A stretch of DNA of 64,000 bases from Tethya wilhelma (taxonomy: Eukaryota > Porifera > Demospongiae > Tethyida > Tethyidae), in contig CAXIPT010000002.1 of the NCBI GenBank assembly GCA_964030475.1, positions 2,488,827 through 2,552,826 of the forward strand, written 5' to 3'. This document shows positions 27,688-59,352 of this stretch, piece by piece. The notes under the pieces were generated by a model, which was not told the DNA's origin, made no database searches, and worked only from the letters and a program-made list of their open reading frames with translations. How positions within the stretch are numbered: the stretch's first letter is position 1; every line of letters starts with the position of its first letter. The translations under genes were made by a program, and so were the position numbers.

Positions 27688-27727
27688 CTCTATTCATGAT
27701 TATAATTATAACTGTAACATTTTACAG

Positions 27728-30143
27728 GTTTTGTTCGTGGTGAAAGACCATGTATCATTGCACTACGCCTTGTTCCTGATGATGGAAATACCTACTGGGA
27801 CTACCTCAACATCAAGTATCCTGGAAGACCATTGTGCTTCTCTGTTTTTGAAGCTGATGTGAAAGATGCAATCACTATTTCTCAAGGTCGGGGATTCCTA
27901 CATTTTGGCTATACTAGCAATCGTAATGGCAGTATTTCGCGCCACAAGTTCAAAGAGCCAAAGGAAATTACATTTGTCATCAATTTCACTAATTCTGAGA
28001 TTCTACAGGAGTTGGCCGTTAGTCTTCCATGCCCTCGCTCTGGGTCTCTTCCTCAGAATCAGCTGATAGACGACAAGTCCATCCAACGCATGATCTTGTC
28101 ATCTGACATCCTACTACGATTGTTTGTGAGCAAAGAAACACACTCTTCTGGTGGCTTCAAGTATGACTTGTTGACTCAACTAAACAAGGCCAATTCTGTG
28201 GATAAGATTGATGTGGTTGACTTCAACACAATCAATTTGTGTCTCCAAAAGTTTGTGAGCGATTACTTTGAGCAGCATCCAACAGAAAACAAGATTGTTA
28301 TCAAAAATACGGGCTGGGATGTGTTATCTTGTGAAGGAGTGCTTATTCTAGACCGCTTTGATTCAGAAGTTACCGATATTGCCGATCTATCCAAGAAATT
28401 GGAACGTCTTCGAATAACCCCCAACATCAACGTGATTGTGGAGTGCTTTGTTGATAACCGGCTTGATGCAGAAAGGGCATATCATCGCATCCGAGTCTAC
28501 TCCACTAGAAATGGGAAGGAAAAAGAGCCTCACCGATCAAATATTCCAACATCAATATCTCCCTTGTTCTACACTTTCTCGCGACACCTACCCTACTGTA
28601 AGGGTGACACTTCCATGCTCCACGTTGACACAGTCACCAGTGCTGATATTCGCTATCAGATACATGTCATCACACAGCACTACTGGAACACCATGGTGCC
28701 TGTGCTCATGAAAGTGGACAAGCGTGCAGAACAGGTCATATTTGGTTTCGACTTTGTTCTATCTCCAAACGGGCCAGTTTGTATTGAAGTAAACAACCTT
28801 GACTCCCTTTCCACACTCTCATTGTATGTGTACGAGACATACGGTGATGAGTGTGGCCTAGTGCCTCTCTATGGGATGTATAATCACATGCTCACACGTT
28901 CTTATGACTACATGTTGGGTGGTCGCACGATCATTGTTGTTGGAGTGGGTTGTTACAGCAAGCTGCGTCTGTTTGAGTTCTTGGCCAATATACAAGCAAA
29001 AGTAATATTGATTGACACCCAGCCACCTCCATCAGGTATTGAAGTCCAGTACTACATTCAAGCTTCATTGTACGATCCGACCAAGTATGAAGTGGAGATC
29101 GAAAAGACAGTGGCAAAGTTGAAAGAAATGAATGTGGTGCCTTTCTCTGTAGTTACACTCTACGAAGACTATGTTCCCTTTCGGACCATGTTGACCAATG
29201 TTTTACAACAAGAAGGCATTCTCAACATCCGTAATCACACCTTGACTGCTGAAGATTCATTCCGCAACAAAGACAAGGTCCGTGTATACAACACAATCAG
29301 AGGTGGTACATCATCCCACTTTGAAGCTCGTCACTTTTCAATTGCTTCAGATGCAACGGTCTTGACTGATGAAAATGTCTCAACCATTCAAATCGACCGT
29401 CCTCACATTTTGAAGCTAAGTACCTCATCAAGTGCATATGGATGCATGCGAATCAATACTACCAAGGATATCGTGCCTGTTTACAAATCCGCCAAAAATC
29501 TCATTGCTGAAACACCTTTAGATGCTGGTGTTGGGATGTGTTTTGACACACAGATCTTCATGAGTGAGTTGTACACTGGGAGTAAGCATGGCCTTGACAT
29601 CATCATGAGCGATGGAGAGCCAGTATGGCACATTTTTAGTGATAGTAGTGAAGTGGCAGCTGAAAGTGGGACTACTGGTACCCAGTTTCTCAAAAAGGGG
29701 TGTACAATGCCATCCACAATTATAACAGGCGTAAATTCAAAGCAAATTTTGTCTCGCATCGTCCAATCATTGAAGTGCTTGTCTCTGACTCATGGCATCT
29801 TTAATGTTGATTTTATTCTCACAGCTTTTGGCGTCAAAATCATCGACGTCAACCCACGCCCTGGGGGCTATTACATCAATGAATGGGTGAATGTAATTTC
29901 TGGTGTATGCACTTTGCAGCTGAAGTCATTCTTCAAAGCGAACTGGAGTACTTCGTTCAGCCACTGATAACCAAGAGAAGCATTACAGGCTTTAACGTGT
30001 TCACAAAGAAGGAGCTGAACAAAGAAATGGCTCGTAACTCCAATAGTGGTGAAGATGTTCGTGTATTTTTCGTGCAGAACCCAGATGAGGAGGTTGACCC
30101 AACTGAGCTGTATGCAACTGTTTACAAAATAACTACAAATTAA
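27728..30143 (+). CDS. carnosine-synthase-like ATP-grasp protein, copy 2 (late frameshift)
   Basis: Exon 2 starts at 27728 after ttacag (FVRGERPCIIALRL) and runs as one frame to a premature stop at 29967. Compared with copy 3, one base is missing at about 29912 (gcactttgc versus gcacctttgc). The normal C-terminal frame (AAEVILQSELEYF to the TAA at 30141-30143) continues intact one frame over. Features: N-terminal ATP-grasp-like half (GFDFVLSPNGPVCIEVNN), Rossmann-like pre-ATP-grasp segment (IIVVGVGCYSK), and C-terminal ATP-grasp core (FNVDFILTAFGVKIIDVNPR) with the D..N..R metal/ATP residues. The layout follows CARNS1. It has no exon 1 of its own; the only upstream candidate is copy 1 exon 1. 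Without the C-terminal about 60 residues it may be non-functional, or the missing base may be a sequence error. Confidence 0.75.
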
Positions 30144-30554: not shown

Positions 30555-33500
30555 ATGCAGAAATTTCAAAGTGAAAAGGCAGAGGAAATGAGTAAGTTTA
30601 GTTCTTCATACACAGCATGCTCTGTGATTAGTCATTGTTATACTCAAATGCAAATGGCCAGGTATTTCAAGTGTCATTATGTCACTTTTGGGAAATAACT
30701 TAATATATTATTATATGCAAAAAATTACACAGTATATGTAAGTGCTGTGAGAATGGCTCATTATGCATGCATCCTAACAAATAACACTCTTAACACTATA
30801 CATACACAATTTTGTACAAAGACAGTTTTCAAGGGGTATACTTGTATACGTAGTGACTCAATTGAGTAGTACAAATTGTATGGAACCAAACAGCTTAGCC
30901 AATGGTATTGTTGCAACAAAACTTTCTGGATTTACGGTTACTGTACATTAATTATTAGTGAATTCTCAATGTACATTTTGTTCTGATGCATGGTTACTGT
31001 ATATTGACTATTAGTGAAGTTTCATAGCTATCTATATGTACATTTTGGTTTATTGAGTTAGCATCGACACGAATTCTGCCCATCTCTCCATGTGTAGCCA
31101 CGCATACCGAATATTAAATTTTAATATATGAAAAGTTTTGCGGCGCATAAAGTTCCAAATTAACAGCATATTGTATCGCCGGAAATATTGAGTCAAAATA
31201 TTTGATGGCTTGCTCCGCAGAACGTAAAATGAAAATATTGATAAACTTTGGATTGGACTTCAATCGCTAAACCGTCAAATTAAAAACTCCGTTAATATTC
31301 CAGGCTATGTAGTATACAAACGTGTATCACATCAACTTTGGTTACATACTAAATGATTAGTCTTTGATAAGAAGTCATGCACTGCTCTTTAATGGCCGCT
31401 CATTTTGAAATTATAAACTCTTGATTTAAGAACACCTTTCTAAGAAAATGGAAGAATTCTTTGATCCATGATACAGTGCTTATAGTCTATTGAGTAGAAT
31501 TCGAGTTTTTGCCAACAACTTTATTAAATCTAACTTTTGGCTGAATATTAAGTTTATTTTGAATAAATGACAATGTTTCAGAACTACATGTAGTTAACTG
31601 TTTGTCCTACGCCAACTTTCAGGGTATGGTCATCATCAGATTTGAAGTGTTTATGGAATTCAATAGTTTGTACTTAGATATCATTGGTAGTATATGGTTT
31701 CAGGACAAGCTGATGGTACTCAAAGCTAGTCCATTTTATGACAAAATTGTCATGCAAGTTTCAGACCTTAGCTGCTAATGGTTCTAGAGTCTCCCACCTA
31801 ATAGAGAACGAATAGAAGAAGTCACAGAAAATAATGCTCACTGAAAGTGATGTATATGCTTCTAGCTATGCAAAGTCCTGCACAAGATGGACAAACTAGT
31901 CATAAGTGCTTGGGTAAACTGGCAGACCTTATAGCTAGAAACAGTTGGCCATTATCTCACAGAACCAAATTTTCATTAGTACTGTATATTGGAAGCCATA
32001 TCTCTACACTTAAGGTTGCCACGACAACATCTCTGGTTAAGTTAGTGTTATGGCCTAATGATCATCCAAAATTTTTAAATACTGTTTAAGAGTTATTAAT
32101 GTACACCAGGTACATATCTAACATCAAAGGTATGTTTGTAAGCTAATGGTATTACTTTTGGAACACTACCGATACTTGTATGCATGTACGTAAAACATTT
32201 ATTTTCATTGTCTCTTAATTGGTTCCACATGTGATTAATGATTTTAAATGGCCTCTCTCTCTGACTCTGCATGCATGAGTCATGAAGACACAATGAAATT
32301 TTGTAAAATAAACAGGTATACAGTGCATGCATGGATTACCATAATTCTATAGACAGACTTTATTCCATGCAAGTGTAGCAACATGACAATCATTTTGAGC
32401 TATATTGGTATTATGCACATTATATTTTTGTAATCGTTAATTTTAATTTCAAATGGCAATATACAGAATGATCAAGGAATAAAATGTACAATATCAGTCT
32501 ACTAGCTCAGCCTCTATAGCTTTGTCCCCAGGCTCTACTCTCACGAATATTTCCTTGAAGGTAATATATTCATGAAGGAGAAGCCCGGGAATGAGGCTAG
32601 GTTTGGCCAGCTTGCTGGGTTAACAGTGTACATGCATATGTACAGCCAAACTATTAATTCATAACAACTAATGTGAAAGGAATATTAGTTAGACCACTTA
32701 TAGAGAACTTTTGTTGCACTCAAGATTCTAGCTATTTTAGTAGCCTTCTTGTTTGTAGATCATAATTATAGAAACCTCCAAAACAGTATCTAGCCATTAT
32801 TTACCTTGTAATAAGGTCACTATTATTACCCACAAATAATAGTATCGTAAGTTAAAATATTTTTATTCATGAATATAATAACTGAAACATTGTACAGGTT
32901 TTGTTCGAGGTGTAAGGCCATGTATCATTGCCCTGCGTCTTGTTCCAGATGATGGAAATACCTACTGGGACTACCTCAACATCAAGTATCCTGGAAGACC
33001 ATTGTGCTTCTCTGTTTTTGAAGCTGATGTAAAAGATGCAATCACTATTTCTCAAGGTCGGGGGTTCCTACATTTTGGCTATACTAGCAATCGTAATGGC
33101 AGTATTTCATGCCACAAATTCCAAGAGCCAAAGGAAGTTACATTTGTCATCAATTTCACCAATTCCACTATTCTACAAGAGCTGGCAGTTAATCTTCCAT
33201 GCCCTCGCACTGGATCTCTTCCTCAGAATCAGCTGATAGATGACAAGTCCATCCAACGCATAATCTTATCATCTGACATTCTACTGCAATTGTTTGTGAG
33301 CGAAGAAACACACGCTACTGGTGGCTTCAAGTATGACTTGTTGACTCAACTGAACAAGGCCAATTCTGTGGACAGGGTTACTGTCACCAATTTCAAGACA
33401 ATTAATTTGTGTTTGCAAAAGTTTGTGAGCGATTATTTTGAGCTGCATCCAACAAAAAACAAAATTGTCATTAAAAATACGAGCTGTGATTTTTCTCGCG

Positions 33501-35302
33501 CAGGAATGCTTATTCTAAACCGCTCTGAAGTTGCCGATCTTTCTCAGAAATTGGAGCTTCTCCAAATAACTCCTGCTGTCAATGTGATAGTTGAGCGCTT
33601 TATTGATAACAAACTGGATTCTGAAAGGGTCTATCATCGCATCCGAGTCTACTCTACTCGCAATGGAAAAGAAAAGGGGATACACCAAGAAAATATTCCT
33701 ACATCAATATCACCCTTGTTCTACACTTTCTCGCGACAGCCACCCTACTGCACAGGTGACACTTCTATGCTTCATGTTGACACAGTCACCAGTGCTGATC
33801 TTCGCTATCAGATACATGCCATCACACAGCACTACTGGAACACCATGGTGCCTGTGCTCATGAAAGTCGACAAGGGTGCTGAACCAGTCTTATTCGGTTT
33901 CGACTTTGTTTTATCTCCAAACGGGCCAGTTTGTATTAAGGTGAATAACCTTGATTCCCTTTCCAAGCTCTCAGTGTTTGTGTATGAGACGTACGGTGAT
34001 GAGTGTGGCTTAGTGCCTCTCTATGGGATGTACAATCACATGCTTACACGTTCTTATGACTACATGTTGGGTGGTCGCACGATTCTTGTCGTTGGAGTGG
34101 GTGGTTACAGCAAGCGGCGTCTGTTTGAGTTCTTGGCTAGTATTAAAGCAAAGGTGGTGTTGATCGACCCCCGACCACCTCCATCTGGTATTAAAGTCCA
34201 ATACTACATTAAAGCTTCACTGTACGATCCATTTCAGTATGAAGTGGAGATTGAAAAGGTAGTTTTGAAGCTGAAGGAGCTTAACGTGGTACCATTCTCT
34301 GTAGTTTCGCTCTACGACGATCATATTCCGTTTCGTACCATGCTGACCAATGTTTTACAACAAGAAGGCATTCTCAATGTCTGTAATCACACCTTGACTG
34401 TTGAAGATTCTTTCCGCAACAAAGACAAGGTCCGTGTATACAACACACTGAGAAGCAATACATCATCCTACTTTAAGTCTTGTCGCTATTCGATTGCTCC
34501 GGATTCAACTGTCTTGACTGACAAAAATGTCACAACAATTCAAATTGATCGTCCTCACATTCTGAAGCTGAGTACCTCTTCAGCTTCGTATGGTTACATG
34601 CGTATCAATAGTACCAAGGATATCATTCCTGCTTACACAACCATGAAAAAGCTCATAGTCAATACACCTTCAGATGCTGGTTGTGGGATGTGCTTTGGCA
34701 CGCAGATCTTCATGAGTGAGTTGTACAATGGAAGTGAACACAACCTTGATATCATCATGAGCAACGGAGAGCCTGTTTGGCATATATTTGGTGACAAGAG
34801 TATTGTGGGTGCTGAAGGTAAAAACATGGTCACTGGTACTCAGTTCTGTAACAAAAGTCGTGTAATGCCATCCACGATCATAACAGGCCTAAAATCAAAG
34901 CAAATTTTATCCCGTATCATTCAATCGCTCAAGTGCTTGTCTCTGACTAATGGTGTTTTTAACGTTGATTTCATTCTCACAGCTTTGGGTGTCAAAATCA
35001 TCGACGTTAACCAACGCCCTGGCGGATTTTACCTTAACAAGTGGATAAATGCTATATCTGGAGTATGCACCTTTGCGGCTGAAGTCATTCTTCAAAGTGA
35101 ACTGGAGTATTTCGTTCAGCCACTAGTAACCAATAGAAGCATTACAGGCTTTAATGTGTTCTCAAAGAAGGAGCTGAAGGAGGAAATGGCTCACATACCC
35201 AATAGTAGCAACGATGTTCATGTTTTTTTCATACAGAACCCAGATGAGGAGGTTGACCCAACTAACTTGTATGCAACAATTTACAAAGTAACTACAAATT
35301 AA
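30555..35302 (+). CDS. carnosine-synthase-like ATP-grasp protein, copy 3, intact (813 aa)
   Basis: Exon 1 (30555-30591) encodes MQKFQSEKAEEM. Intron 1 is 2.3 kb. Exon 2 (32898-35302) completes the 814-codon frame, with TAA at 35300-35302. Approximate residues: N-terminal ATP-grasp-like half, core GFDFVLSPNGPVCIKVNN at 346-363; Rossmann-like strand ILVVGVGGYSKRRL at 408-421; C-terminal ATP-grasp core FNVDFILTALGVKIIDVNQR at 700-719 followed by PGGFYLNKW. This matches the CARNS1 pattern (GVFNVELKLT...EINPR.GGFYLRDW). CARNS1 joins beta-alanine to histidine using ATP, but the substrate here is unknown. NPR is NQR in this copy and the N-terminal EVNN is KVNN, so activity may differ from copy 2. 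It is probably cytosolic, with no signal peptide or TM. It is the only complete copy in the array. Confidence 0.85.
32517..32602. mobile_element. short MITE in intron 1 of copy 3
   Basis: tagctttgtccccaggctct ... gcccgggaatgaggcta is an inverted pair of the tagcctcgttcccaggc family. The orthologous position in copy 4 (37469-37550) carries it too; copy 2's intron relic does not. Confidence 0.6.
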
Positions 35303-39726: not shown

Positions 39727-42700
39727 TCATGTACATTGCTCCAGCAGGCATAATCGGTGTGAGTCCAGGGACTTTGGAAAGTTCTGAGAAGCAAACTTTG
39801 GCATTGTTCTCAAAAACTTCCATTGTTTCAGAGAAGAATGATTCTGGAACATTTTTGAAAGCATCTGGAAGAGTGCATTTCCAATAGGGTTCTCACTGAT
39901 GTCCAGTTTCTCTAATGATGTCATTGATGGTATGGCATTGGCTAGGTGAGATAGAGCAGTCTGATCTAGTTTGGTATTGTGCAGGTCTAGCTTTACCAGA
40001 CCATGTAAGACTCGCTGTGGGAGTTGACAAAACCACCTCATACCATCTGCAGTGATGGAGTTGGAAGATGTGACACCACTAAAGTCAGCTTCTGAAATGT
40101 AGCCCTTGTATTCAGTAAGACTGTTCACCATCACTCCTCTCGAGAACATCTTCAATCCATCATCATCAATAAACTGCCAAAAGTCTAAATCCCACCCACA
40201 GTTTGACAGTGAGAGGCAGTAGCCAGTGACATAGAAATCTAGAGGAGTCCAACTGTATGATGATACAACTCTCATCTCCTTCTCTCCTAGAATGGTAGCT
40301 ACAATGGAGGCATCACCAGCTTCAAAGAGCCAATGAAAGAGGGTCAGTTCATCTTCACTGTCCAGTAACTGCTGAGTCAGCTCTGGTGAGAGATGGTGAG
40401 AGTGAGTTATGCCGGCCAAGAATCGTAGAGGCATCTTGAAATGGCTGGATCGGAGATGTTGGTGAACCAATGTATTCTGTTCTTCTGGTGGTAGTTGACT
40501 GACGTACAAGGCGGCTAGATACTCCTGCAACGTGAGGTGGATGAAGTTGTATGACTTGTGGGTGTGCTCTTCATCATAGAGCTGCTCCACTGCCTTCATT
40601 AGTCCAAGAGACTCAAACTCTGAGGGAAGGTCACTGAACACTAACTGCCGTTTTACTACTCCATTGTATGCCAGTTCACAGAGAGACCAGAACTGCTTGG
40701 AAACACCAGGAGGTAAGTCAGCTAATCCACGCAGCTTCCACTCACTGGATCCCTCTTTGCTTGAGAGATGCTGTGTCAGCAACTTGAGGGTGAAGCTTGT
40801 GTAGAGTTGAGTCACTGTAGTTGGAGGGGGTGAGTCTGTTTCTTGACTCCATTCAAACACCTCTGCAGCAATGTCGGCAGTAATGGGGGTATGCATGCTG
40901 GCTAATATGGCTGCATTGGAGGAGGTGTACTCGACAAATTGTTGGGATAGTGAACTGTTCATCTTTCCTCCTCTAAGCACACGATCTAGTTGGATTTTTG
41001 GTGTGGTTAGAATTTCAATATGTTGGTCAGTCTCTTTAGATATCTTCTTTGCAATCTCTTGACTAGCCCACGGTCTGCTGGTCACAAAGATGGTAGCTTT
41101 TGGTAGAATTCGTCCGTGAATCAGATCTAAGAATACTGAAGACTTGGTACGGCGGTCTTCATCCAGTTCATCGAGTCCTTCCAACCACAGGATGACCCCT
41201 TCACCTTGGCTGCTCTCCACCTCTTGTGCTACTGTGTGTTGGAGTTGAGAGTGATGGAAGAGATCAGCGATGGTTTTGGCTGATCTCACTCGGTTGTCTC
41301 GTAGTGGGAGGAGGACAAGAAGAGAGTACTCTTGAAGAACTTCTCCTTGAGACCACTTGTAACAAAACTGAGAACTAAAGGTCGTCTTTCCAACACCAGG
41401 TGCTCCCTCAATCAGTACTAGCTTGGGTTTATGATATTTACGAGAATACCAGACCTTCCCTATTACATCTTCAGTCAGTGGTCTCTTGGTATAAACCACA
41501 TCATCCACATCACCTCGGATGCTTGATCTTGTGAAGCTGTCCATAGTCTGCCTATTAACTTGTTTCTTCTCAATCCTAGCTAGTTTAAAAGGAGCAATAT
41601 TTTTCCCCTCCTTGGAGGAGTAAACTCCTTTGAGGTAGGCTGCATACTTCTTCACAGGGGAGTAGTAACACTCTTGTCCATTTATGGTAATCACCTTGAT
41701 CTGGTTCACCTTATAAAACTCTGTCAAACTCTCTGCCATATTTGTCATGTCTTCTCTCAAAGCAGCAGCAATCGGAGCAGGGATGGCCCAGGTTATCACA
41801 AACGAATTGTGTTCATCAGCATTTTTCAAGATCAAGACAAACGATGGAAGGAAAAACTTGTGAGTTATTGTTCTTTTCAGCTCCTCCAGGTCCTCTAAGG
41901 TGGTCTCTTGCCAGTTTCCCTTCTTCCTCACCACAAACTCTTGCAGCTCTGTTTCAGGGAGGGAGACGCCTTTCTTTGACCAACAGTCAATAAAATCACA
42001 GAGACGAGTGTCTTTACGAAACTTTTGAAGTTCACTAACGTAAGTGTTCATCTGAGATTGCAAATCTTCAGGGCCAAACATTTTGACCACATGTTCCAAC
42101 AAGGTGTAGTTGAGGAAGTCCCAGTACTGGTTGAGCTGAAACCACAGGTCACTCAGTTTGGTGCCTTCCTTCATTGCCAGCTGCTCCTTGAAGAAGTCTT
42201 GATGTTCTTTTCTCATAGACAATCCCAGAGTACCAATGTGGGCATAGAATGTTCCAGCCTCAACTTTCCTTTGAACAAGTGTATCAAACGTACTATGAAC
42301 AAGCTGTAGAAACTTTCCCTCAATACAAGTTACTTTGGTATCAACTGACTCTGGTTCTGTAGAGAAAGAGAGCAAGATGACTGAATGACTGAATGACTGA
42401 ATGGTGCACATCATAACACAAGTAGCTGTCATCTCACTGACCTTTGGGTGGCTCCTGATCTGCTGTTGTTGAAGATGATTCTTGAGACCTGTCCCCACCT
42501 ACACCGCATGAAGAGAGAGAGAGGACTACAGTGAGTCACTGATATACACTGACACTGAACCCAATTCTAATTCTAGTCTAATTCTCCTCACCTGACTCAC
42601 TGGGGTCACAGGGGTCACTGGGTAGAAGAGTCTGTTCCACAGGATGCTCTAGACCAGGTGCTTTGTGAGGAGGTGTATTGGCTTGTCTCTCTGTTGAACC

Positions 42701-43568
42701 GACTGAACCAGAGCTTCCATCTTCAGTTGTCACCTGTCCATCAGGAGGAATGGCTGAAGCACCACTCTCTCCCTCACCACCAGCTGGGTCAATGTACTGC
42801 TTCTTGATTTGTTCTGCTAAGAGACTAAACCCAACAGTAGGTTGTTTCAAAGCCTCTACCAAGGCTGACCATGTCGGGTGGGGGGAGGTCTGTTTGAGCC
42901 ATAATTTCAACATGGCTGTGAAACAGCTCTGCACATCCCGGTTCTCCATGCCAATGGCTTCAAGGGTTGTGGGGTCAAGGTTCAATTCTACTCCAATATC
43001 TTCCCATTTTGTACGAGCATCCCACAAAGCCTTCCTAACTTCCTTCAGATCACTCAGCGATAGCTGGTCTGTGAGGAAAGAAACCATTGTTGATGGCTAC
43101 TGTTATGATTTAATGTAGACAGACTTACCCAGAGGTCCAGGATTCCGTTCCACATTCCCAGACTGTAGTAGTAGTCCAGCTACAATGATGAGGAGAAACA
43201 CTGCTAGCAAGGTACCACCATTTTCATTTGTCTTCCCAAGATGGCAACCAACACCACCCACCTCAGAGAAACCACTCACAGCTGCTGCTAGGAGAGAAAC
43301 ATGGAGTTTGGTAGTCAATGGAAAGGGGTCGTTTCATTCTGTTGCTAGTTGGGAAATGGTGGTCAATACTAGAACCTCTCAACTTACATTGGTGTTGTGC
43401 TGGTTGTGCCTCTCCAGACCACCACTGTATGAGCATCATGAGAGGAGAGGCTAGCAGGTCCAACAAGATGGACCATGGACCACATCTCACAACATTCCTG
43501 CTCACAACAGGGATGTGGTTATAACAGAGACCAATGGACACCCTCCACTGTTCTGCACTGATGGGCAT
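39727..43568 (-). CDS. Death-NACHT NLR with N-terminal TM and 2A-like motif
   Basis: Five exons join in phase to 1,167 residues: 43568-43388, 43287-43129, 43068-42592, 42498-42442 and 42356-39727 (TGA at 39727-39729). Residues 1-85 include hydrophobic stretches (SILLDLLASPLMMLI). Residues 86-101 (TLLAVFLLIIVAGLLL) are a TM or signal segment, followed at 104-112 by GNVERNPGP, a 2A-like motif. The Death-fold domain is about 118-202 (LKEVRKALWDARTKWEDIG). A conserved sponge NLR linker (HIGTLGLS..., YWDFLNYTLLEHVV) leads into NACHT: Walker A GAPGVGKTT (609-617), Walker B VILWLEGLDELDED (about 679-692), sensor FVTSRPWA. The C-terminus has only about two LRRs (LVKLDLHNTKLDQTAL, LEKLDISENPIGN). An innate-immune sensor/scaffold is inferred; the ligand is unknown. 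The LRR part is short for the family and may continue in missing sequence. Confidence 0.88.
43133..43159 (-). other. 2A-like ribosome-skipping motif (GNVERNPGP)
   Basis: At the end of NLR exon 2 the codons spell G-N-V-E-R-N-P-G-P, immediately after a hydrophobic segment. The consensus is D-V/I-E-x-N-P-G-P, so all positions fit except N in place of D. In 2A peptides the bond between the last G and P is not formed, which releases the upstream product. Such motifs are known at NLR N-termini in sea urchin and sponge and can double as signal sequences. Whether the D-to-N change keeps activity is unknown. Confidence 0.8.
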
Positions 43569-43936
43569 TATCGGATCCTCTCTTCTTTGGTCAAGAGTTT
43601 AAGACTTCTTTAGTTTAGAGAATATTAACAAATTCGGTAGCTGCTACAAAGGAAATTAAGAAATTTGGGTGTGGGTGTGCCCACACACGTCCTATATCTG
43701 TATAATAATGATAAATGAGGCTTCTGAAGTATTTTCAGCTATTTATTTGCTTATATATTTACCTTTTTTGTAAACTTAGAAGCTATTGTAATTGGTTTCT
43801 GTCTTCAAAACACCTTGCTCACTGAAACATGAACTGATTGTTTTGTGTTGTTTTATAGCGCACGAGATCAAGAGTGGGTGGGGCTCGCAATATATTTCAT
43901 ATCGCGAAATTTAATCATACATTAACATGATAAAAT

Positions 43937-48935: not shown

Positions 48936-49154
48936 CACCCATATATATAGGTGGGATATAGTGTGGGGGTACGCTAAATCCCTCCTACATATATGGGCGG
49001 GCAGGGCAAAATCTTGGCGTACCCCACGCTAAATATCCCACCCATATATATAGGAGGGATTTAGCGTAGGGGTACGCTATTTTCCTCCTATATATATGGG
49101 AGGGATTTAGCGTAGGGGTACGCTATTTTCCTCCTATATATATGGGAGGGATTT
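48936..49154. repeat. tandem palindromic repeat array ending at an N
   Basis: Units of about 45 bp built from cctcctatatatatgggagg, atttagcgta and ggggtacgcta repeat two to four times. The module cccacccatatatatagg/tggg is inverted at the left. The array is interrupted by an N at 49155, so its true length is unknown. It lies directly 5' of the GPCR start (49183). Confidence 0.75.
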
Positions 49155-49182
49155 NTTTTTTGAGAGACGTGACTTCACAAGC

Positions 49183-50313
49183 ATGGACTACTTGAACAGA
49201 TCATTCTCAGGCACTGAAAGGTTCCTCAACACCACTGAGAGTGAAGAAAACAGCACAAATATCACCAGCAACTGTGGACTCACTCTACCTCAGCCTCTCC
49301 TGACTCCAGCAGTGACCAGAGCACTACGCTACATCCCTCTGGCTTACTACTTTGCAGGGTTGCTATTTGCCATCACTCTCAATACATACATTATTGTGCT
49401 GATAGCAAGACACAAGAAACTACATAATATGAGTTTCTACCTAATCTTGCAAATTATCGCTGCTGATCTGATTTTCGCCCTTCATTTCTTTCCAGATAGT
49501 ATCGTTAATGTTTTCCTCAACACTTGGTCACTTCCATTTAGTGTATGTGATGTGCTTGTTTTGATTTTCTCCATTGGACGACATGTTCGAAACTTTCTTA
49601 TGTTAGTATTGGGTATAGATCGACTGTGCAGTGTTTTCCTACCATTTTGGTTCCCTAAACATCGCAAGCTTGTGATTGTCCCGCTCTCCATTGCAGCTTG
49701 GCTACTAGCTTTTGTTGTTGCATTTGCTCCTGCATCGGGAATTCTGGGTTGCAACAATTTTGCTGATCGATCCTTCTGGGTTTGTGAACGGCCCATACCC
49801 AGTGAGAATAGATGTGACAGGAATGTAATGGCCAACAATTGTATATACTTTCAAATCTTCACAATAACTGTGTCCAATTTCAGTTTACTTGTGTGTTCAA
49901 TTCTATACCTCATTTTGTTTTACAAAACGAAAAAATTGAAACGAACTGTTGTCCCTAACTTCCAAATGCCTGACAGAAGTGACGATTCACAACTTGAAGC
50001 TTCCAGAGATCAAGCACAGTCTAAAAGACGTGTTACAACTACATATGTCCTACTCTTCTTGGCCATTGCGTTTCCAACTCTCGTTTTCTTAGCTGCTTCA
50101 AGTACTATTAATATTACAGATCCAGACTCAATGCAAGGTTCAAACCCTCCAAATCCTGTACTTATTGCTATCCTAAGTATTTTTCTTAGAAGTTTGTTTT
50201 CATTTATTGTTTTTGTCGATCCTATTATACTCATGAAAAATGGCGACATGAGAGAGGCCAATAGAAAGGTGCTAACAACACTAAAGAAAAAGTTGTCAAG
50301 AAGACCTAATTAG
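49183..50313 (+). CDS. rhodopsin-like GPCR, intronless (376 aa)
   Basis: A single exon with ATG at 49183 and TAG stop. Extracellular N-terminus about 50 residues with sequons at N5, N16, N23 and N26. TM1 52-75, TM2 84-106 (IIAADLIFAL, with the conserved D at 95), TM3 119-145 ending in IDR (145-147, the DRY equivalent), TM4 163-184, TM5 220-247, TM6 286-306, TM7 326-350 with DPIIL (346-350) in place of NPxxY. Short basic tail, KKKLSRRPN. Cysteines at 122 and in loop 2 (190, 201, 211) could form the usual disulphide. A sponge-type class A receptor; ligand unknown. Intronless receptors in tandem suggest retro-origin followed by local duplication. A paralogue (decayed) lies at 53646. Confidence 0.88.
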   Translation: MDYLNRSFSGTERFLNTTESEENSTNITSNCGLTLPQPLLTPAVTRALRYIPLAYYFAGLLFAITLNTYIIVLIARHKKLHNMSFYLILQIIAADLIFALHFFPDSIVNVFLNTWSLPFSVCDVLVLIFSIGRHVRNFLMLVLGIDRLCSVFLPFWFPKHRKLVIVPLSIAAWLLAFVVAFAPASGILGCNNFADRSFWVCERPIPSENRCDRNVMANNCIYFQIFTITVSNFSLLVCSILYLILFYKTKKLKRTVVPNFQMPDRSDDSQLEASRDQAQSKRRVTTTYVLLFLAIAFPTLVFLAASSTINITDPDSMQGSNPPNPVLIAILSIFLRSLFSFIVFVDPIILMKNGDMREANRKVLTTLKKKLSRRPN

Positions 50314-52462: not shown

Positions 52463-53645
52463 CTATTGCATTAATCGAGTCAGAACTGAACTTCAATCTT
52501 GTCTTGCTGTGATTAATTCTGGTTGTAGTACTTTTTCTTATGAAATATGATTATAGGCGAAGTTTACGTCCCATCCTATCAAATTAGAATGTAATGATGC
52601 TGTTTAGGAGTACTGTAGAAGTTCAAATACCCAATCTTGCTGCTAGGTAATAATTACATCACTTGTCATTTAAGTACTTGTATAAACACACCATTCAGCT
52701 GAAAACTATACATTCCCATGAATAAAAATTGTGCTTGTTCCATGAAACATAGACTTATGCACCTTAAAATGTCAATATTAGCTATAGCCAGAGAACAGTA
52801 CAGTTCTGAGGGGTACAGAAAAAGTATATACATGGAGCTCTACTATACCTACCAATTGATGACAAAATTTTGACAAAGCCCTTTATGTTATGCCACACAA
52901 GATTAGCCCATTCCATATTGAACCAAAAGTACTAGTTAGTATGATAACAATGACTACTATTGTTGGCTTACTTTTAGAGTTAGAGGTACAGAAACAATGA
53001 GAGTTCATAGACTCATCACAAACTCGGCATGATTTAGCCCAAAATGCATACGTAAGTAGGTATTTGCACTTTATTATTCCAGTGCCAAGTAAGTATATTC
53101 TTACCTGTTCCAATGAACCTCCACTGTAACAAAACTATTGCCTCTCCAGCTTCTCTTCGCCTCTTTTCTTGCTGACTTGCACGACAAAAGAACTCGCGAA
53201 TTTTATGGCAGCTGTCAAAAATTGAAACCCGCGCTGTCCGTGAAAATTACATTGGAGTAAATGGGCGTTTCCAATCCCGGTCACGTAGTCTATATTATCT
53301 ATGGCGTAATATGCCATGCATGCATATGCTTAGCATGTATGTGACTTAGAATGTAAAAACTATAAAGAATCGACGCGAATTGAAGATATATGGTAGATCG
53401 AGCTGCATTGGAACTTATGTTCATTAATTTAGTTTATGTTTTTTTAAACCTTTCCTTGGTTGCTATTGCGTAATATGCCATGCATGCATCTTTCTGAAAA
53501 GTTATGTATAAAAGAAAAACTGCAAATCGTAGATAGCAAGAGCTGTGTATGAATTCAGGTTGACTTCTCGATCGTTAACAACCTGTAGCTACAAGTTGAT
53601 CTCTTTGCATCTGTGTAACCAGCATTTCTGAGAGACTTCACAAGC

Positions 53646-54732
53646 ATGAACTACTTCAACATATCATTCTCGGATGTTGAAGATTTCCTGAACATCACTG
53701 AGAGTGAAGAAAATCCCACTAATGCCACCAACAACTGTGGACTTGCTCCACAGCTGCCTCTCTTGACTCCAGCAATGACCAGAGCGCTACGCTACATCCC
53801 TCTGGCTTACTACTTTGCAGGATTGCTGTTTGCTACCACTTTCAATACGTACATTATTGTGCTGATAGCAAGACACAAGAAACTACACAGTGTGAGCTTC
53901 TATCTAGTCTTGCAAATTATTGCTGCTGATCTGATTTTCGCCCTTCATTTCTTTCCAGATAGTATCGTTAATGTTTTTCTCAACTCTTGGTCACTTGGAT
54001 TTAGTGTATGTCATGTATTTTCTTTTTTTTTCTCCATAGGACGACATGTTCGTAACTTTCTGATGTTAGTATTGGGTATATATAGATTGACTGTGCAGTG
54101 TTTTCCTACCATTTTGGTTCCCCAAACATTGCAAGCTTGTGATTGTCCCTCTATCAATTGCAGCTTGGCTCCTAGCATTTGTCATCGCCTTTGCTCCTGT
54201 ATCGGGGATTCTGCATTGCAACAATTTTGCCTATCGATCCTTCTGGGTTTATGAGCTGCCCAAGTCCAGTGGCAATAGATGTGAACGGAATATAGTGGCC
54301 AATAGTTGCATTTACTTGCAGATCTTCATAGTTACATTATCCAATTTCAGTTTGCTTGTGTGTTCCATTCTATACATTGTTTTGTTCTTGAAAACAAAGA
54401 AGTTGAAGCGAACTGTTGTCCCTAACTTCCATAGACCTGACAGTAGTGATGATTTACAGCTCAAAGCTTCCCGGGAACAAGCACAATTCGAAAGGCGTGT
54501 CATTCTCATTTTCTTTGTTGGTGCCAGTACAGTTAGCGTTAGATGCCCAGACTTGATGGCAAGTTGAAAGCCTTAGAATCCTCTACTCATCGCAATCCTA
54601 AATATTTTCATTTGAAGTTTGTTTTCTTTTATTGTCTTCATTGATCCGATTATACTCATGAAAAATGGAGACATGAGAGAAGCCAATGGAAAGATGCTGG
54701 CAACACTGAAGAGAAGGTTTTTCAAGAATTGA
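53646..54732 (+). pseudogene. decayed GPCR paralogue
   Basis: Residues 1-145 match the GPCR at 49183 closely (RYIPLAYYFAGLLFA, IIAADLIFALHFFPDSIVNV, IGRHVRNFLMLVLGI). A 4-base insertion (extra tata at about 54076-54082) then shifts the frame just at the IDR motif. TM4-TM5 continue in the next frame (VIVPLSIAAWLLAFV, SNFSLLVCSILY). The TM6 region has a deletion ending in a stop near 54567. TM7 and tail (VFIDPIILMKNGDMREA) follow in yet another frame to about 54732. At least two independent lesions make function unlikely. Confidence 0.85.
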
Positions 54733-55439
54733 CATTGAATACAAAATTATCGTGTTTTCAAACCTATACTACAAAAAAAAAGGGGACCAACAGGTTAAAT
54801 AAATTTAAGAGACTTTGATTTGAAATGTGTATTTAATGTAGTTAGACAAGTACCTATTAGCATTAATTTGTCATGCATACTGAAGTAAATTTTAGCTATG
54901 GAGGACAGTAGTCCTCAACATAATTATTTTAAACAGTCAGAAAACCTTTTTAGTGTGTTTTCCTTGTGATCACCCTACTACCATTGAGTGTGCTACTTTT
55001 GTGATAATCAAATTTTAGTGTGTTTTCCTCTCAATTATAACATATTGTTCATAGTTATATTTTATTGTAGTTTGTTTCAATAACATGTGTGTCTATACAG
55101 TATGTTTTTCAGTAGTAGATACACATGCAAGCTAACATCTAAATCCTATGTAATCTTCTAACTTCACCATACACTGTTTATCAAACACTTTGTTTTTGTG
55201 TATATGCAACACTCTGCATTACTTATACATAATATGTTGCAATCTATAGTTCAAGGTACTAATGTTAGTAGACATGGCTGACAACACCATGCACCCATAT
55301 TGGGCCACTCATTCTTCTTAACCACGACTATGCATGCATGTAGATTAACTCTATACGTAGTTACACATCTCTGACTTTGGTATGTGTGATTTTTGCATGT
55401 GGATAGTATAGTTGTAGCGTTTGTTACTACAGTTTTGTC
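54733..55439. other. spacer between GPCR pseudogene and NLR 2
   Basis: No exon. About 54795-55395 matches 22200-22761. It includes the probable promoter of the NLR, with no motif I can name. Confidence 0.5.
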
Positions 55440-58400
55440 ATGGGTAGTTGTATAAAGAAACCCTCAAGACCAAACCTGAAGCATCCTTTTTTACAAGAGG
55501 ATTACTCATCTCAAAAAAGACACCGATCCTCCATGATCAACAAGAATGTGCCCGTCAAACAGACACTACCAAATCATCCTGTGTTCAATGATTCACTATC
55601 GTATTCTAGTTTTAGTAGCTCTATAAGTTCTTTAGATGACAGCACAAAAAAAACAGTATGTGGTGTTCAGAGCAAGTCAAGACAGCCACCCATAAAGCCT
55701 GCTGTAGGAAGTGAAATCTCTACCACTGAGATGGAACATTGCCAACTTCTTAAAGTTACAACTACCGGATTGTATAGTCCTTATCAGAGCCCATTAGTTC
55801 ACAATAGTAGTAATCCTGCTAGTATATTACTTTCTGAGTGTGAAATTCCAATTTTACTTGAAGTTCTGGCAGAGTATGCCTATAAATGGAGAGAAATTGG
55901 GCTTCTGTTGGGATTTTTGTCCAATGAGCTAAAGGTGATTGCTACCAAACCAAGCCTCTTTGAAAATGCTCCCAACAGCTTTTTGTCAGAAATGTTCACC
56001 AGATGGGTTCAATGGAGCCCACAGACACACCATGGCAAGCATGCCACCCTCGATGATTTAGTCAATGCTCTGAGAAGCAAGGCTGTTGGATTAGCGACTG
56101 TTGCTGAAGAATTGAAGAAGTCATTCAGTGGTACGTATGTTATGAGAAAAGAAAATAATAAACAGTAAACAGTATATAGAGTCAGATTATTGGGTACACT
56201 TTGCTGTTAAGTCAAAGTATATTATGTTCACATGATCAAAAGCTATGAACTATGCTTTGTTCCCTGCATTGTCCTTCAATTTTCATAGGAAGTGGAGCTT
56301 CTCAAACTTCATTCATTTGGATGTGCGGTCATGCATTAGTGTTCCTCATAATTTAGTCATTTTTTTTTCACAATGATCACACATTGTGCCTAATAACCTG
56401 ACTTGACATTAACAGATTTTTTGTTTATTACAGACTCATTATAATGTATTTGTAGGTATTGCCAAACGAACAGCTTGTTTGTCACAAAACACCAAGCAAG
56501 AATCTCGTGATGCTGGGATAGTTACACGAAGCATAAAGTCACCGGATCCATTTGCTTCTCCTCTTGAGCACTATGCTTTCTACCTTCGCTCTTACTTCAC
56601 TTGCAACAGAGAACCAGCTGATAAGTGGCCAGAAATAGAAGCAAAAGAGTACATAAGGTTAGCTGTAGTCAGTAATGAATTTATCGGTCGTGTTGAGTTG
56701 GAAGAATTTCGGGAAGCAACAATTCATGGATCCATTGATGATATTCTAAAATCAAAAGCTCCTCTGGAGTTCAATGATATTTTAAAGCCTATCATAGTTA
56801 AAGGTAGAGAGTATCCTGTAAGACGTATTCTTTTAGAAGGGGCTCCTGGCATTGGCAAGTCTACTATGTCGTGGGAGGTGTGTCAAAAATGGGGAAATGG
56901 AGAGCTTTTTCAAGAATATTTTCTGGTCATCATGCTTCGATTTCGTGACTCGTGGGTTCAAAAGATCAAAAGCCTATCTGATATGTTTCGTTTCTCCAGT
57001 GAGCCTCAAATGCAGCAAGAAATTTCAAAACAAATCAGACAAACACTAGGAAAGGATGTGTTGTTCATTCTTGAGGGATTTGATGAAGCACCACCATCTT
57101 TGAGGAGTGAAGATTCTCTCTTTTTTGAACTTTTCAATGGATCTCTCCTTCCAAATGCCACAGTGATGGTGACAACTCGTCCCAGTGCTAGTTACGATCT
57201 TCAGAGATGTTGTAAAAGTATTAAGTATTCGCGAAGAATCGAAGTGCTAGGATTCGGAAAGAAGGAAATTGATGAGTACATTGAAGCTCACTTTAGCCAA
57301 AGCACTCTTCCTGTTAAAGATTTTTACAAGTACCTTGAGCTCTACCCTCACATCTATAGCATGATGTATGTCCCATTAAACAGTGCTATAGTGACACACG
57401 TGTATCAGATGTGTAAATCAGCTTCTACTTTAGTCCCTCAAACCATGACACAACTCTATACGTCACTGGTGAAGACATTGCTACTGCGCTACCTTAAAGA
57501 TAGAGAAGAATATGAAGATGTCCAGATCAATAGCTTCAGTGATCTTCCTGAGCCTGTTTTTCTCAAGTTCCTACAAATATGCCAAATTGCTTTTGATGGA
57601 TTAACTAAATGTGAAAAAGAGATAATTTTCTCTGGTCTTCCAAAAGATTTTGACTCCCTTGGTCTAATGCAGTCTGTTTCTGAGCTTTACATTGACAAAG
57701 GAGCTTCCGTGTCTCATAACTTTCTTCATCTCACCATTCAAGAGTTTTTAGGTGCTTTTTATCTCACAATGCGTAATGAAGATGAACAAATTAATTTCTT
57801 GGACCAGAATTTTTATGGTAAGGAGGGGGACAAGAAGTCTTATCAAACAGAAATGGCCAGGTTTTTTGCAGGTCTTTGTGAAAATAATCCAACACCAGTT
57901 TGTGAAGTTATTAAAAACAATAGAGTGTACTCGCATCATGATAAACGTAACTGGATTATTAATAAAATCGAGGTCCATTTGTTGTTCGAATTACATACTC
58001 CTAGTGTTTTGGCCAGTATTTTTGATTCACAAAACCCAATGTTTGGCTATGAACTCCATGAATATACATCGGATAATCTTTATTGGGATGATTCATGTGT
58101 AGATGATGACTTGCTACCAATTGATCAGCTAATTTCTTTCACTCCCTACGACTTCTATGTGCTGAGCTATGTCATTGTAGCTTCAGATTGCAAGTGGAAG
58201 GTTGGACTTTCTCATGACTCAATCCTAACAGATGCTATATTTGAGAATTTATTGTCAACTGATCAAGGTAGCGAATCTGGTCCATCTGCACATATAGCTG
58301 AATTGGAATGTAGTTTGTACTCGGGTAAAATTACCAAATTAGTAGATTTGCTTCCCAATCTGAATCATTTCTGTATTGGGTATCTTGGATTTACTGTTGG

Positions 58401-59352
58401 CAAACTTTCCGCTTGTCTACCTAATCCTCAGCTCTCGCTAACTGTCCATAAACTGTATGTAAGCAATGAAAAGGAATTAGCAGCGGTTGGTAATTTACTA
58501 GCATCTCCACATCACACTTTCAAACACATTGCCATCCAACATTTAGGGTCTGACAGTGTACAATTAATGATTGATTACATCTCAAATCCTCAGTGCTCTG
58601 TACAGGAATTTAGCATAAGGAACTCGGTCGTAAATCCACTAAATATAGCCAGTCTTGCGAAACTTTTGGAAGTAAGTACCACTTTGACTGCTTTCAGTAT
58701 CCATTCTAACCTAGAAACCCATGCTATAGCTTGTTTAGCAAAGGCAATGGAAAAGAATACAATGATAAAGGTCCTTTGTGTTCACAATGATCTTGAAGTT
58801 GACACACAAGAATCCAAAGTTGAATTCGATTTACCTCGTGCTAAAAAAGTCCAAAAAAGGGAATTTTTATCTTCTAGTGCGCTATGTCATATGCTAGTCA
58901 AAAACAAATCTTTGATTCAGCTCAATGTGAAACATTGTCAGCTATCTGGACGGCATCTCACTCTCTTAGCCGAAGTTCTGAAAAACAATTCAACTCTTAA
59001 ATACTTAAACCTCAATCACAATATGGCAGGTAGTGATGGTGCTGCAGCATTAGCTACTGCGTTGAGGAGCAACACGACACTAAGATACTTGCATCTTAAG
59101 CATAATTCAATTGGTAATGAAGGGTTCACCTCATTACTTGAAGCACTGAGCTCTAATTCGACTCTTCGATATTTGTGTCTTAAGGACAACCCTGTTGGTG
59201 ATAAGGATGAACTAGTAGCAATGAGTTCCCTCCTCACTAGTACGTTGAAAGTAGATACGATTTGGACAATATTGTCAAGTTTGTATACAAAAACTGGAAT
59301 TGAAATAGACGTTGACTATGTACCCAAAGAACATATTTTAGAAGTATTGTAA
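55440..59352 (+). CDS. Death-NACHT-LRR NLR (1,195 aa)
   Basis: Two exons: 55440-56130 (donor GTACGT) and 56456-59352 (acceptor tttgtag; TAA stop), in phase. The N-terminus reads MGSCIKKPSRP, resembling dual myristoylation/palmitoylation signals of Src-family kinases. Residues about 20-120 are serine-rich and disordered. A Death-fold domain is at about 125-228 (IPILLEVLAEYAYKWREIG ... VNALRSKAVGLATVAEELKK). NACHT: Walker A GAPGIGKST (359-367), Walker B VLFILEGFDEAP (about 432-443), VMVTTRPSAS, and a winged-helix/HD region with FLHLTIQEFLGAFYL. The C-terminus has RNI-type LRRs (LKYLNLNHNMAGSDGAAAL, LRYLHLKHNSIGNEGFTSL, LRYLCLKDNPVGD; about 1050-1155). Unlike the NLR at 39.7 kb it has no TM or 2A. 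A cytosolic-face immune sensor is inferred. Confidence 0.9.

What the first reader, a model, noticed from the sequence alone, without database searches (positions are those of the whole stretch)
43129..43287. 2A-like motif directly after a TM segment at an NLR N-terminus
Exon 2 of the NLR encodes TLLAVFLLIIVAGLLLQS followed by GNVERNPGP. If skipping occurs, ribosomes release about 111 residues carrying the membrane/signal segment and then make a cytosolic Death-NACHT protein; without skipping, the whole receptor is membrane-targeted. One mRNA would yield two locations. The motif has N instead of the usual D, so it may be a weakened switch. The exon boundary right after NPGP-L suggests the signal is a separately shuffled module.
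Basis: partly seen in the sequence, partly recalled or inferred. Interest (0 to 1): 0.78.

Follow-up and report, generated by a model that had tools for sequence, protein, structure and literature searches.

The report
Swappable 2A leader on immune receptors
An immune-receptor gene, probably of an animal, begins with a short, interchangeable leader that should make ribosomes release a small membrane peptide before building the receptor itself, a trick already shown in sea urchins but here found as a reusable cassette with an unusual motif letter.

Summary
Exon 2 (43287-43129, minus strand) encodes a transmembrane-length hydrophobic stretch followed at once by GNVERNPGP. It is the second exon of a Death-NACHT gene model (five exons, 1167 aa). 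The motif is not chance: 88 G(D/N)(V/I/M)ExNPGP cores occur in the 124.6-Mb genome, against 0 for the reversed pattern. With the position free, all 89 cores found carry D (77) or N (12). A tree fits one D-to-N change. Exon 1-intron 1-exon 2 is a sharply bounded cassette: two copies on another contig are 98-99% identical, while flanks and the next exon have diverged. 'Weakened switch' is not: natural N variants skip at over 95% in published assays. Dual targeting by such leaders is already demonstrated for sea-urchin NLRs (Roulston 2016). New here are the N-type subfamily, the swappable two-exon leader with a 111-residue product, its symmetric 1-1 phase, and 2A exons upstream of NB-ARC, ZU5 and COR-A frames too. 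Skipping, membrane targeting and splicing were not tested.

The parts
43388..43568 (-). Exon 1, 60 codons + 1 base (MPISAEQWRVSIGLCYNH...); no known domain; weakly hydrophobic stretch within residues 29-52
   Evidence: Open frame joined to exons 2-3; 9 rows compared, dN/dS 0.28 over all pairs; no Pfam or NCBIfam match for the 111-aa leader at E 1; KD19 1.59 at best
43288..43387 (-). Intron 1 (100 nt), part of the shared cassette
   Evidence: 95/100 and 97/100 identical with the two close copies on C1
43129..43287 (-). Exon 2, 159 nt, phase 1-1 (symmetric): linker, hydrophobic stretch, 2A core
   Evidence: GT/AG ends; 53 codons; 12 rows aligned
43160..43213 (-). TLLAVFLLIIVAGLLLQS, transmembrane-length hydrophobic stretch
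   Evidence: KD19 2.35-2.37
43133..43159 (-). GNVERNPGP, 2A/StopGo core with N at position 12; predicted break between G and P
   Evidence: Pattern match, 0 of 100 shuffles; 88 genome copies vs 0 control
42592..43068 (-). Exon 3, Death domain
   Evidence: Pfam PF00531 28.5 bits, residues 133-189
42442..42498 (-). Exon 4, short linker exon
   Evidence: GT/AG model
39727..42356 (-). Exon 5, NACHT ATPase, HD2-like region, LRR-like C-terminus below threshold
   Evidence: Pfam NACHT 60.7 bits, residues 604-741; NLRC4_HD2 26.7 bits (cut-off 33.1); LRR_4 14.7 (cut-off 27)
43124..43572 (-). Leader cassette shared with C1:18.659 Mb and C1:18.678 Mb: from GATAATG (four bases before the start codon) to the exon-2 donor GTAAG. 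With C1:18.659 Mb alone the likeness runs about 30 bases further upstream and 10 further into intron 2
   Evidence: Three-way alignment; 440-base search: full-length copies at 99% and 98%

Best explanation
The leader (exons 1-2, residues 1-111) is a genuine, selectively maintained 2A/StopGo signal sequence. Each ribosome decides at NPG|P. If the Gly-Pro bond is skipped (probably the usual outcome), a 111-residue leader peptide with a C-terminal hydrophobic tail is released, and a cytosolic Death-NACHT receptor starting with Pro is made. If the bond forms, the hydrophobic segment emerges fused to the receptor and directs it to the secretory pathway or membrane. The leader is an interchangeable cassette carried by a subset of the genome's Death-domain receptors and homogenised between contigs. 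Shown here: sequence, conservation, cassette edges, phase, clustering. Inferred: skipping, its efficiency, targeting, the fate of the leader.
For: 88 cores vs 0 reversed. With both residues before V/I free, 89 cores, 77 D and 12 N, control 4. One mismatch adds only 3. Two searches that did not require the core agree: all 11 listed protein matches confined to exon 2 and all 11 DNA matches (the window included) that reach the core coincide with intact cores. In exon 2 the core varies least (pN 0.031, TM 0.106, pre-TM 0.255). Of 67 distinct contexts 44 have a GTRAG donor in phase 1, 2 in phase 0, 2 in phase 2, 19 none. Exon-type leaders are more hydrophobic than transposon-type 2As (50 of 59 KD19 at least 1.6 as run; five transposon-type 0.49-1.15). 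N rows on one side of a branch, 93/83, next to a D copy, 98/96. Published: a sea-urchin NLR 2A leader skips (~80% in vitro) and, when non-skipping, sends the reporter to the Golgi (PMC4981915); natural N variants over 95% active (PMC12846837).
Against: No translation, localisation or RNA data. D12N in a foreign 2A context was only modestly active, and upstream context matters strongly. Here the 2A lies 111 residues in, not at the extreme N-terminus as in the tested sea-urchin leader. Exon 1 has its own weakly hydrophobic stretch, which could engage the translocon first; some proteins translocated into the ER inhibit the 2A reaction (PMC2978324). L-rich upstream sequence is itself a StopGo feature, so hydrophobicity alone does not prove a membrane role. 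pS is also lowest in the core (0.159). No Death or listed NACHT hit was found downstream of 60 of 88 cores (incomplete lists). One Death match (C2:12860534) runs back to query residue 80 through two stops and has no core. The protein lacks a significant LRR match.
Confidence: 0.66

Rival explanations
1. Skipping is near complete and the hydrophobic stretch is only the tunnel-binding part of the 2A. The leader is discarded, the receptor is always cytosolic, and there is no dual targeting.
For: L-rich LLLLSG-like upstream motifs matter for StopGo in their own right (PMC12846837 section 10). The natural N variant is over 95% active. The stretch is inside the tunnel when the bond is skipped (30-40 aa tunnel).
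Against: Exon-type leaders have stronger hydrophobic stretches than transposon-type 2As in the same genome (only 5 of the latter). Exon 1 is under purifying selection (dN/dS 0.28). The sea-urchin leader is a working signal sequence when fused.
Confidence: 0.2
2. The N copies are inactive or nearly so, and this subfamily is a constitutively membrane-anchored receptor; the core is a relic.
For: D12N was only modestly active in a foreign 2A context. Transmembrane NLRs have been proposed in sponges (PMC12909245).
Against: All 11 exon-2 relatives found without asking for the core keep it (compared). The core is the least variable part of exon 2. The natural N variant tested is highly active.
Confidence: 0.08
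3. Splicing is the switch: exon 2 is symmetric (159 nt, phase 1-1), so skipping it gives an in-frame soluble receptor and including it a membrane/2A form; some genes have two leader exons in a row.
For: Phase 1-1 and in-frame exon 1-exon 3 junction read from the sequence. Two N exons follow a D-type 2A exon on the same strand 700-846 bases downstream (C2:1357685/1358531, C3:213684/214384).
Against: Does not explain the conserved core. No RNA data.
Confidence: 0.06

Closest known systems
Sea-urchin NLR N-terminal 2A signal sequences (SpNLR2A; Roulston et al. 2016, PMC4981915)
   Same: 2A core after a hydrophobic leader at the N-terminus of Death-NACHT receptors; dual targeting proposed and shown with reporters
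   Different: The tested leader is 26 aa at the extreme N-terminus with D in the core; here a two-exon, 111-aa leader with N, carried as a cassette shared between contigs
Viral StopGo/2A sequences with rare N at position 12 (Li et al. 2026, PMC12846837)
   Same: (D/G/C/N)(V/I)ExNPGP; L-rich stretch ending SG before position 12 (LLLQSG here, LLLLSG-like motif class there)
   Different: Viral polyproteins there; here a cellular gene family in which one inherited D-to-N change fits best
2A sequences of non-LTR retrotransposons
   Same: Same core; two loci in this genome (L004, L019) read GDVE(T/V)NPGP straight into PHD-like and endonuclease-like sequence (judged by eye)
   Different: No GTRAG donor within 60 bases after the core, weaker hydrophobic stretch
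Membrane-bound NLRs proposed in sponges (Dysidea avara, PMC12909245, citing Amphimedon work)
   Same: NLR genes with a predicted transmembrane segment
   Different: The passages I saw do not mention 2A; here the N-terminal segment is immediately followed by a 2A, so the receptor may not stay attached to it. I did not look at the Dysidea or Amphimedon sequences

Membership tests
StopGo/2A recoding element | Core (D/G/C/N)(V/I)ExNPGP | tested here: met
   GNVERNPGP at 43159-43133; motif definition from PMC12846837
StopGo/2A recoding element | Suitable upstream context (motifs 2/6: L-rich, ending in [A/S/C]G) | tested here: met
   ...AGLLLQSG-N, compared by eye with motifs 2/6; not run through the paper's motif software
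StopGo/2A recoding element | Uncoupled products in translation | not testable with these tools
   Needs an assay
SpNLR2A-type dual-targeting leader | 2A at the extreme N-terminus acting as signal sequence | tested here: not met
   Core ends at residue 111 behind a separate exon 1. Other leaders of this genome come closer: L005 and L006 have a Met 21 residues before GDVETNPGP, 30 aa in all
SpNLR2A-type dual-targeting leader | Targets the fused product to the exocytic pathway | not testable with these tools
   Only hydropathy was computed
Bona fide NLR (NACHT + LRR) | NACHT domain | tested here: met
   60.7 bits, cut-off 26.7
Bona fide NLR (NACHT + LRR) | LRR domain | tested here: not met
   LRR_4 14.7 bits, cut-off 27; so filed as a Death-NACHT receptor, not as a bona fide NLR
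Death-NACHT architecture (the NLRD class without its LRR) | N-terminal Death domain | tested here: met
   28.5 bits, cut-off 22.6

The most novel reading that the evidence does not exclude
The genome keeps a pool of interchangeable 2A leader cassettes that are swapped or gene-converted onto different Death-domain receptors (NACHT, NB-ARC, ZU5, Roc-COR). Each recipient mRNA thereby makes two proteins: a small leader that is inserted like a tail-anchored protein and works on its own, and a cytosolic receptor, with a minor fused membrane form. Many 'transmembrane NLRs' reported in sponges would then be 2A products rather than membrane receptors.
Probability: 0.25. Interest if true: 0.78.

Novelty: new variant of a known kind. 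Interest (0 to 1): 0.55.

Why it matters
Cellular use of 2A is considered rare (PMC12846837). Here one genome carries 89 cores; of 88 checked, 28 have a Death hit within 2.5 kb or a listed NACHT hit within 9 kb downstream, and one leader type moves as a unit between receptors. That gives a natural set of D and N leaders for measuring how recoding efficiency sets the cytosol/membrane ratio of an immune receptor. It also warns that a transmembrane call at an NLR N-terminus may be a 2A leader that is released during translation.

Tried and rejected
Species naming: not achieved. 'Animal, probably a sponge' is my inference from the compact genome, short introns and the large NACHT/Death repertoire, not a test.

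Protein database: residues 1-250 of the model gave no hit at E 1e-3. PDB by sequence: none for residues 1-208 at E 0.1.

Chance: rejected. The looser pattern had 4 control matches against 89; the short pattern is expected 0.27 times in the window.

Weakened switch because of N: rejected as a default reading on published data.

Whole-gene duplication as the reason for the leader's identity: rejected. Between window and C1:18.659 Mb, exon 1 dS is 0.03 and exon 2 dS 0.00, but exon 3 dS is 0.98 and most of the 5' flank is unrelated. Against a simple story: over its first 372-391 codons exon 5 has a dS of only 0.20-0.30, so the genes are mosaics and the Death exon, not only the leader, has its own history.

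Weak points of my counts. Of 88 motif contexts 74 were fetched; 14 were not. (My second notebook entry, says 18; 14 is right.) In one search I had labelled L083 transposon-type, but it has a Death hit downstream: moving it makes 51 of 60 against five; L092, L097 and L107 were put there by eye, and L080 and L091 were dropped as too short. In one search one of the 44 phase-1 donors lies 52 bases on and may be chance. The tree left out eight loci, leaders shorter than 30 residues and exact repeats; it has few columns, long branches, a bootstrap that had not settled and a midpoint root. In one search the rows C1_17935 and C1_17936 are identical in exons 1-2 and may be one copy entered twice. Death/NACHT counts use only the listed best hits.

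Prior work not seen: Rao 2025 (Cell Rep), Odon 2013 and Yuen 2014 are not held. Rao 2025 may already list sponge or other animal 2A receptors. Two listings were not opened: PMC9925728 and PMC5519566.

Full report
What is there. On the minus strand of the window a five-exon gene model (43568-39727) encodes 1167 residues: a 111-residue leader (exons 1-2), a Death domain (exon 3; 28.5 bits, cut-off 22.6), a NACHT ATPase (exon 5; 60.7 bits, cut-off 26.7) and a C-terminus with only sub-threshold LRR similarity. All junctions are GT/AG. Exon 2 ends with a hydrophobic stretch (19-residue hydropathy 2.35-2.37) directly followed by GNVERNPGP and, four bases later (CTGG), a splice donor.

Not chance. 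The core pattern occurs once in the window and in none of 100 shuffles. In the whole genome (124.6 Mb) there are 88 exact matches and none to the reversed pattern. Leaving position 12 free after Gly gave the same 88. Leaving both positions before V/I free gave 89, with 4 in the control; the extra one has D and a changed position 11. So of 89 cores 77 carry D and 12 N. Allowing one mismatch added only 3. Two searches did not require the core. In the listed part of a protein search 11 matches are confined to exon 2, and all 11 coincide with intact cores; one Death match (C2:12860534) runs back to query residue 80 through two stops and has no core. In a 440-base DNA search all 11 matches that reach the core, the window included, coincide. 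Weaker relatives may have been missed.

Who carries it. On the same strand 25 of 88 cores have a Death hit within 2.5 kb downstream, 7 of 88 one of the 102 listed NACHT hits within 9 kb, and 28 of 88 either; 60 have neither. Controls: 1 and 2 upstream on the same strand, 0 and 0 on the opposite strand. These are lower bounds: the lists hold the best hits only, and the window's own NACHT exon is not among them. Ten downstream frames were scanned with Pfam: five gave a match at E 0.01 (Death 22.8 bits against a cut-off of 22.6; NB-ARC/NPHP3_N; ZU5; COR-A; and a Death match below cut-off), five gave none. That the ZU5 and COR-A frames (3.2 and 3.7 kb downstream) belong to the same genes as the 2A exons is inferred from strand and order. 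Two loci (L004, L019) read straight from the core into PHD-like and endonuclease-like sequence, as non-LTR retrotransposons do (judged by eye). The window's second Death-NACHT-LRR gene (55407-59349, plus strand) has no such core: NPGP-type DNA occurs once in the window.

Exon design. Of 67 distinct contexts (from 74 of 88 cores fetched) 44 have a GTRAG donor in phase 1 within 60 bases after the core, 2 in phase 0, 2 in phase 2, and 19 none. In the window gene exon 2 is 159 nt and phase 1-1, so it can be inserted or skipped without changing the frame. If intron 2 is retained, the frame stops nine codons after NPGP (read).

The cassette. Window vs C1:18.659 Mb: exon 1 180/181, intron 1 95/100, exon 2 159/159, but 5' flank 178/400, intron 2 40/60 and exon 3 403/477. 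dS is 0.03 (exon 1), 0.00 (exon 2) and 0.98 (exon 3). The copy at C1:18.678 Mb shows the same (180/181, 97/100, 155/159; exon 3 dS 0.75). Among the three, identity begins at GATAATG, four bases before the start codon, and ends at the exon-2 donor GTAAG; with C1:18.659 Mb alone it runs about 30 bases further upstream and 10 further into intron 2. A 440-base search gave 16 matches: the window, these two full-length copies (99 and 98%), one at 75% (C9) and 12 partial ones. Over its first 372-391 codons exon 5 is intermediate (dS 0.20-0.30), so the genes are mosaics. With a more distant copy (C1:17.936 Mb) intron 1 has lost its likeness (28/64) while exon 1 keeps 170/181. Over all pairs exon 1 has dN/dS 0.28, exon 2 0.48, exon 3 0.31. 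Within exon 2 pN falls from 0.255 (before the hydrophobic stretch) to 0.106 (the stretch) to 0.031 (core), though pS is also lowest in the core (0.159). Gene conversion or duplication of a leader unit explains the identity; I did not look for terminal repeats.

D and N. In a tree of 59 leaders the N rows (10 distinct) lie on one side of a branch (93/83; 94% of 200 bootstrap trees), next to a D leader, L077 (98/96). The tree has few columns and long branches. One D-to-N change followed by retention fits best. Published work extends the core to (D/G/C/N)(V/I)ExNPGP and finds the natural N variant over 95% active, but D12N only modestly active in a foreign context (PMC12846837: abstract and sections 9, 10 and 14 read). 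So N is not evidence of a weak switch.

How it probably works. A sea-urchin NLR leader with a 2A skips (~80% in vitro) and leaves the reporter cytosolic; a non-skipping mutant sends it to the Golgi (PMC4981915: abstract, results part 1 and discussion read). By analogy one mRNA here gives a leader peptide plus a cytosolic Death-NACHT protein, and some fused, membrane-directed receptor. Two inferences go further. First, the stretch starts 26 residues before the last Gly and the tunnel holds 30-40 (PMC2978324 discussion), so skipping is decided before exon 2's segment can be seen by the targeting machinery. The released leader then ends in a hydrophobic segment plus eight residues, the layout of a tail-anchored protein. 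Second, exon 1 has its own weaker stretch (hydropathy 1.59), about 60 residues from the last Gly when the decision falls. If it engages the translocon, skipping could be inhibited, as shown for some artificial secreted polyproteins. Neither is tested.

Is the hydrophobic stretch more than a 2A requirement? As run, 50 of 59 exon-type leaders reach hydropathy 1.6 (median 2.15); with L083 moved, 51 of 60. The five transposon-type 2As reach 0.49-1.15. This favours a membrane role, but the comparison group is small and partly labelled by eye.

Literature. That NLRs can carry 2As is established (PMC4981915; passage in PMC11512398). In the held library no paper that I recognised as joining 2A with sponge NLRs turned up; the one listing with 2A-like, NLR and sponge was a false match, and two listings were not opened. 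A 2026 Dysidea avara paper reports transmembrane domains in NLRs and proposes membrane-bound NLRs (passages only); those passages do not mention 2A. Rao 2025 on eukaryotic 2As is known to me only as a citation.

Verdict. A real, conserved 2A leader on an immune receptor gene: a new variant (N core, two-exon cassette shared between contigs, broader receptor range) of a known kind (2A signal sequences of NLRs).

Noticed in passing
G000:C2:1357685 and 1358531 (L066); G000:C3:213684 and 214384 (L065): A D-type 2A exon and an N-type 2A exon lie 846 and 700 bases apart on the same strand, upstream of Death and NACHT matches (C2) or Death-like and COR-A matches (C3): possible alternative leader exons or a double 2A.
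   Followed up: partly
window 55407-59349, + strand: A second Death-NACHT-LRR gene in the same window with no 2A core, so leaders are carried by only some of the receptors.
   Followed up: partly
window 27718-29964 and 32882-35299, + strand: Two neighbouring long frames with ATP-grasp matches (the second below the family cut-offs).
   Followed up: no
window 49111-50310 and 53619-54251, + strand: Two rhodopsin-family GPCR frames (7tm_1 67.5 and 35.6 bits).
   Followed up: no
G000:C1:17935653 and 17936761 (L067): Two identical N-type leaders 1.1 kb apart in tandem, each followed by a Death match; the Death match of the first copy along the strand (17936761) is shorter and the second leads on to the NACHT exon.
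   Followed up: partly
L005, L006 (G000:C1:13958863 and 13965383): Leaders with a Met 21 residues before GDVETNPGP (30 aa in all), close in layout to the sea-urchin 26-residue N-terminal 2A.
   Followed up: no
window exon 3 (43068-42592) vs paralogues: The Death exon is much more diverged (dS 0.75-0.98) from the three closest copies than exon 5 (0.20-0.30); with two of them the leader is almost identical (dS 0-0.03). The genes are mosaics.
   Followed up: partly
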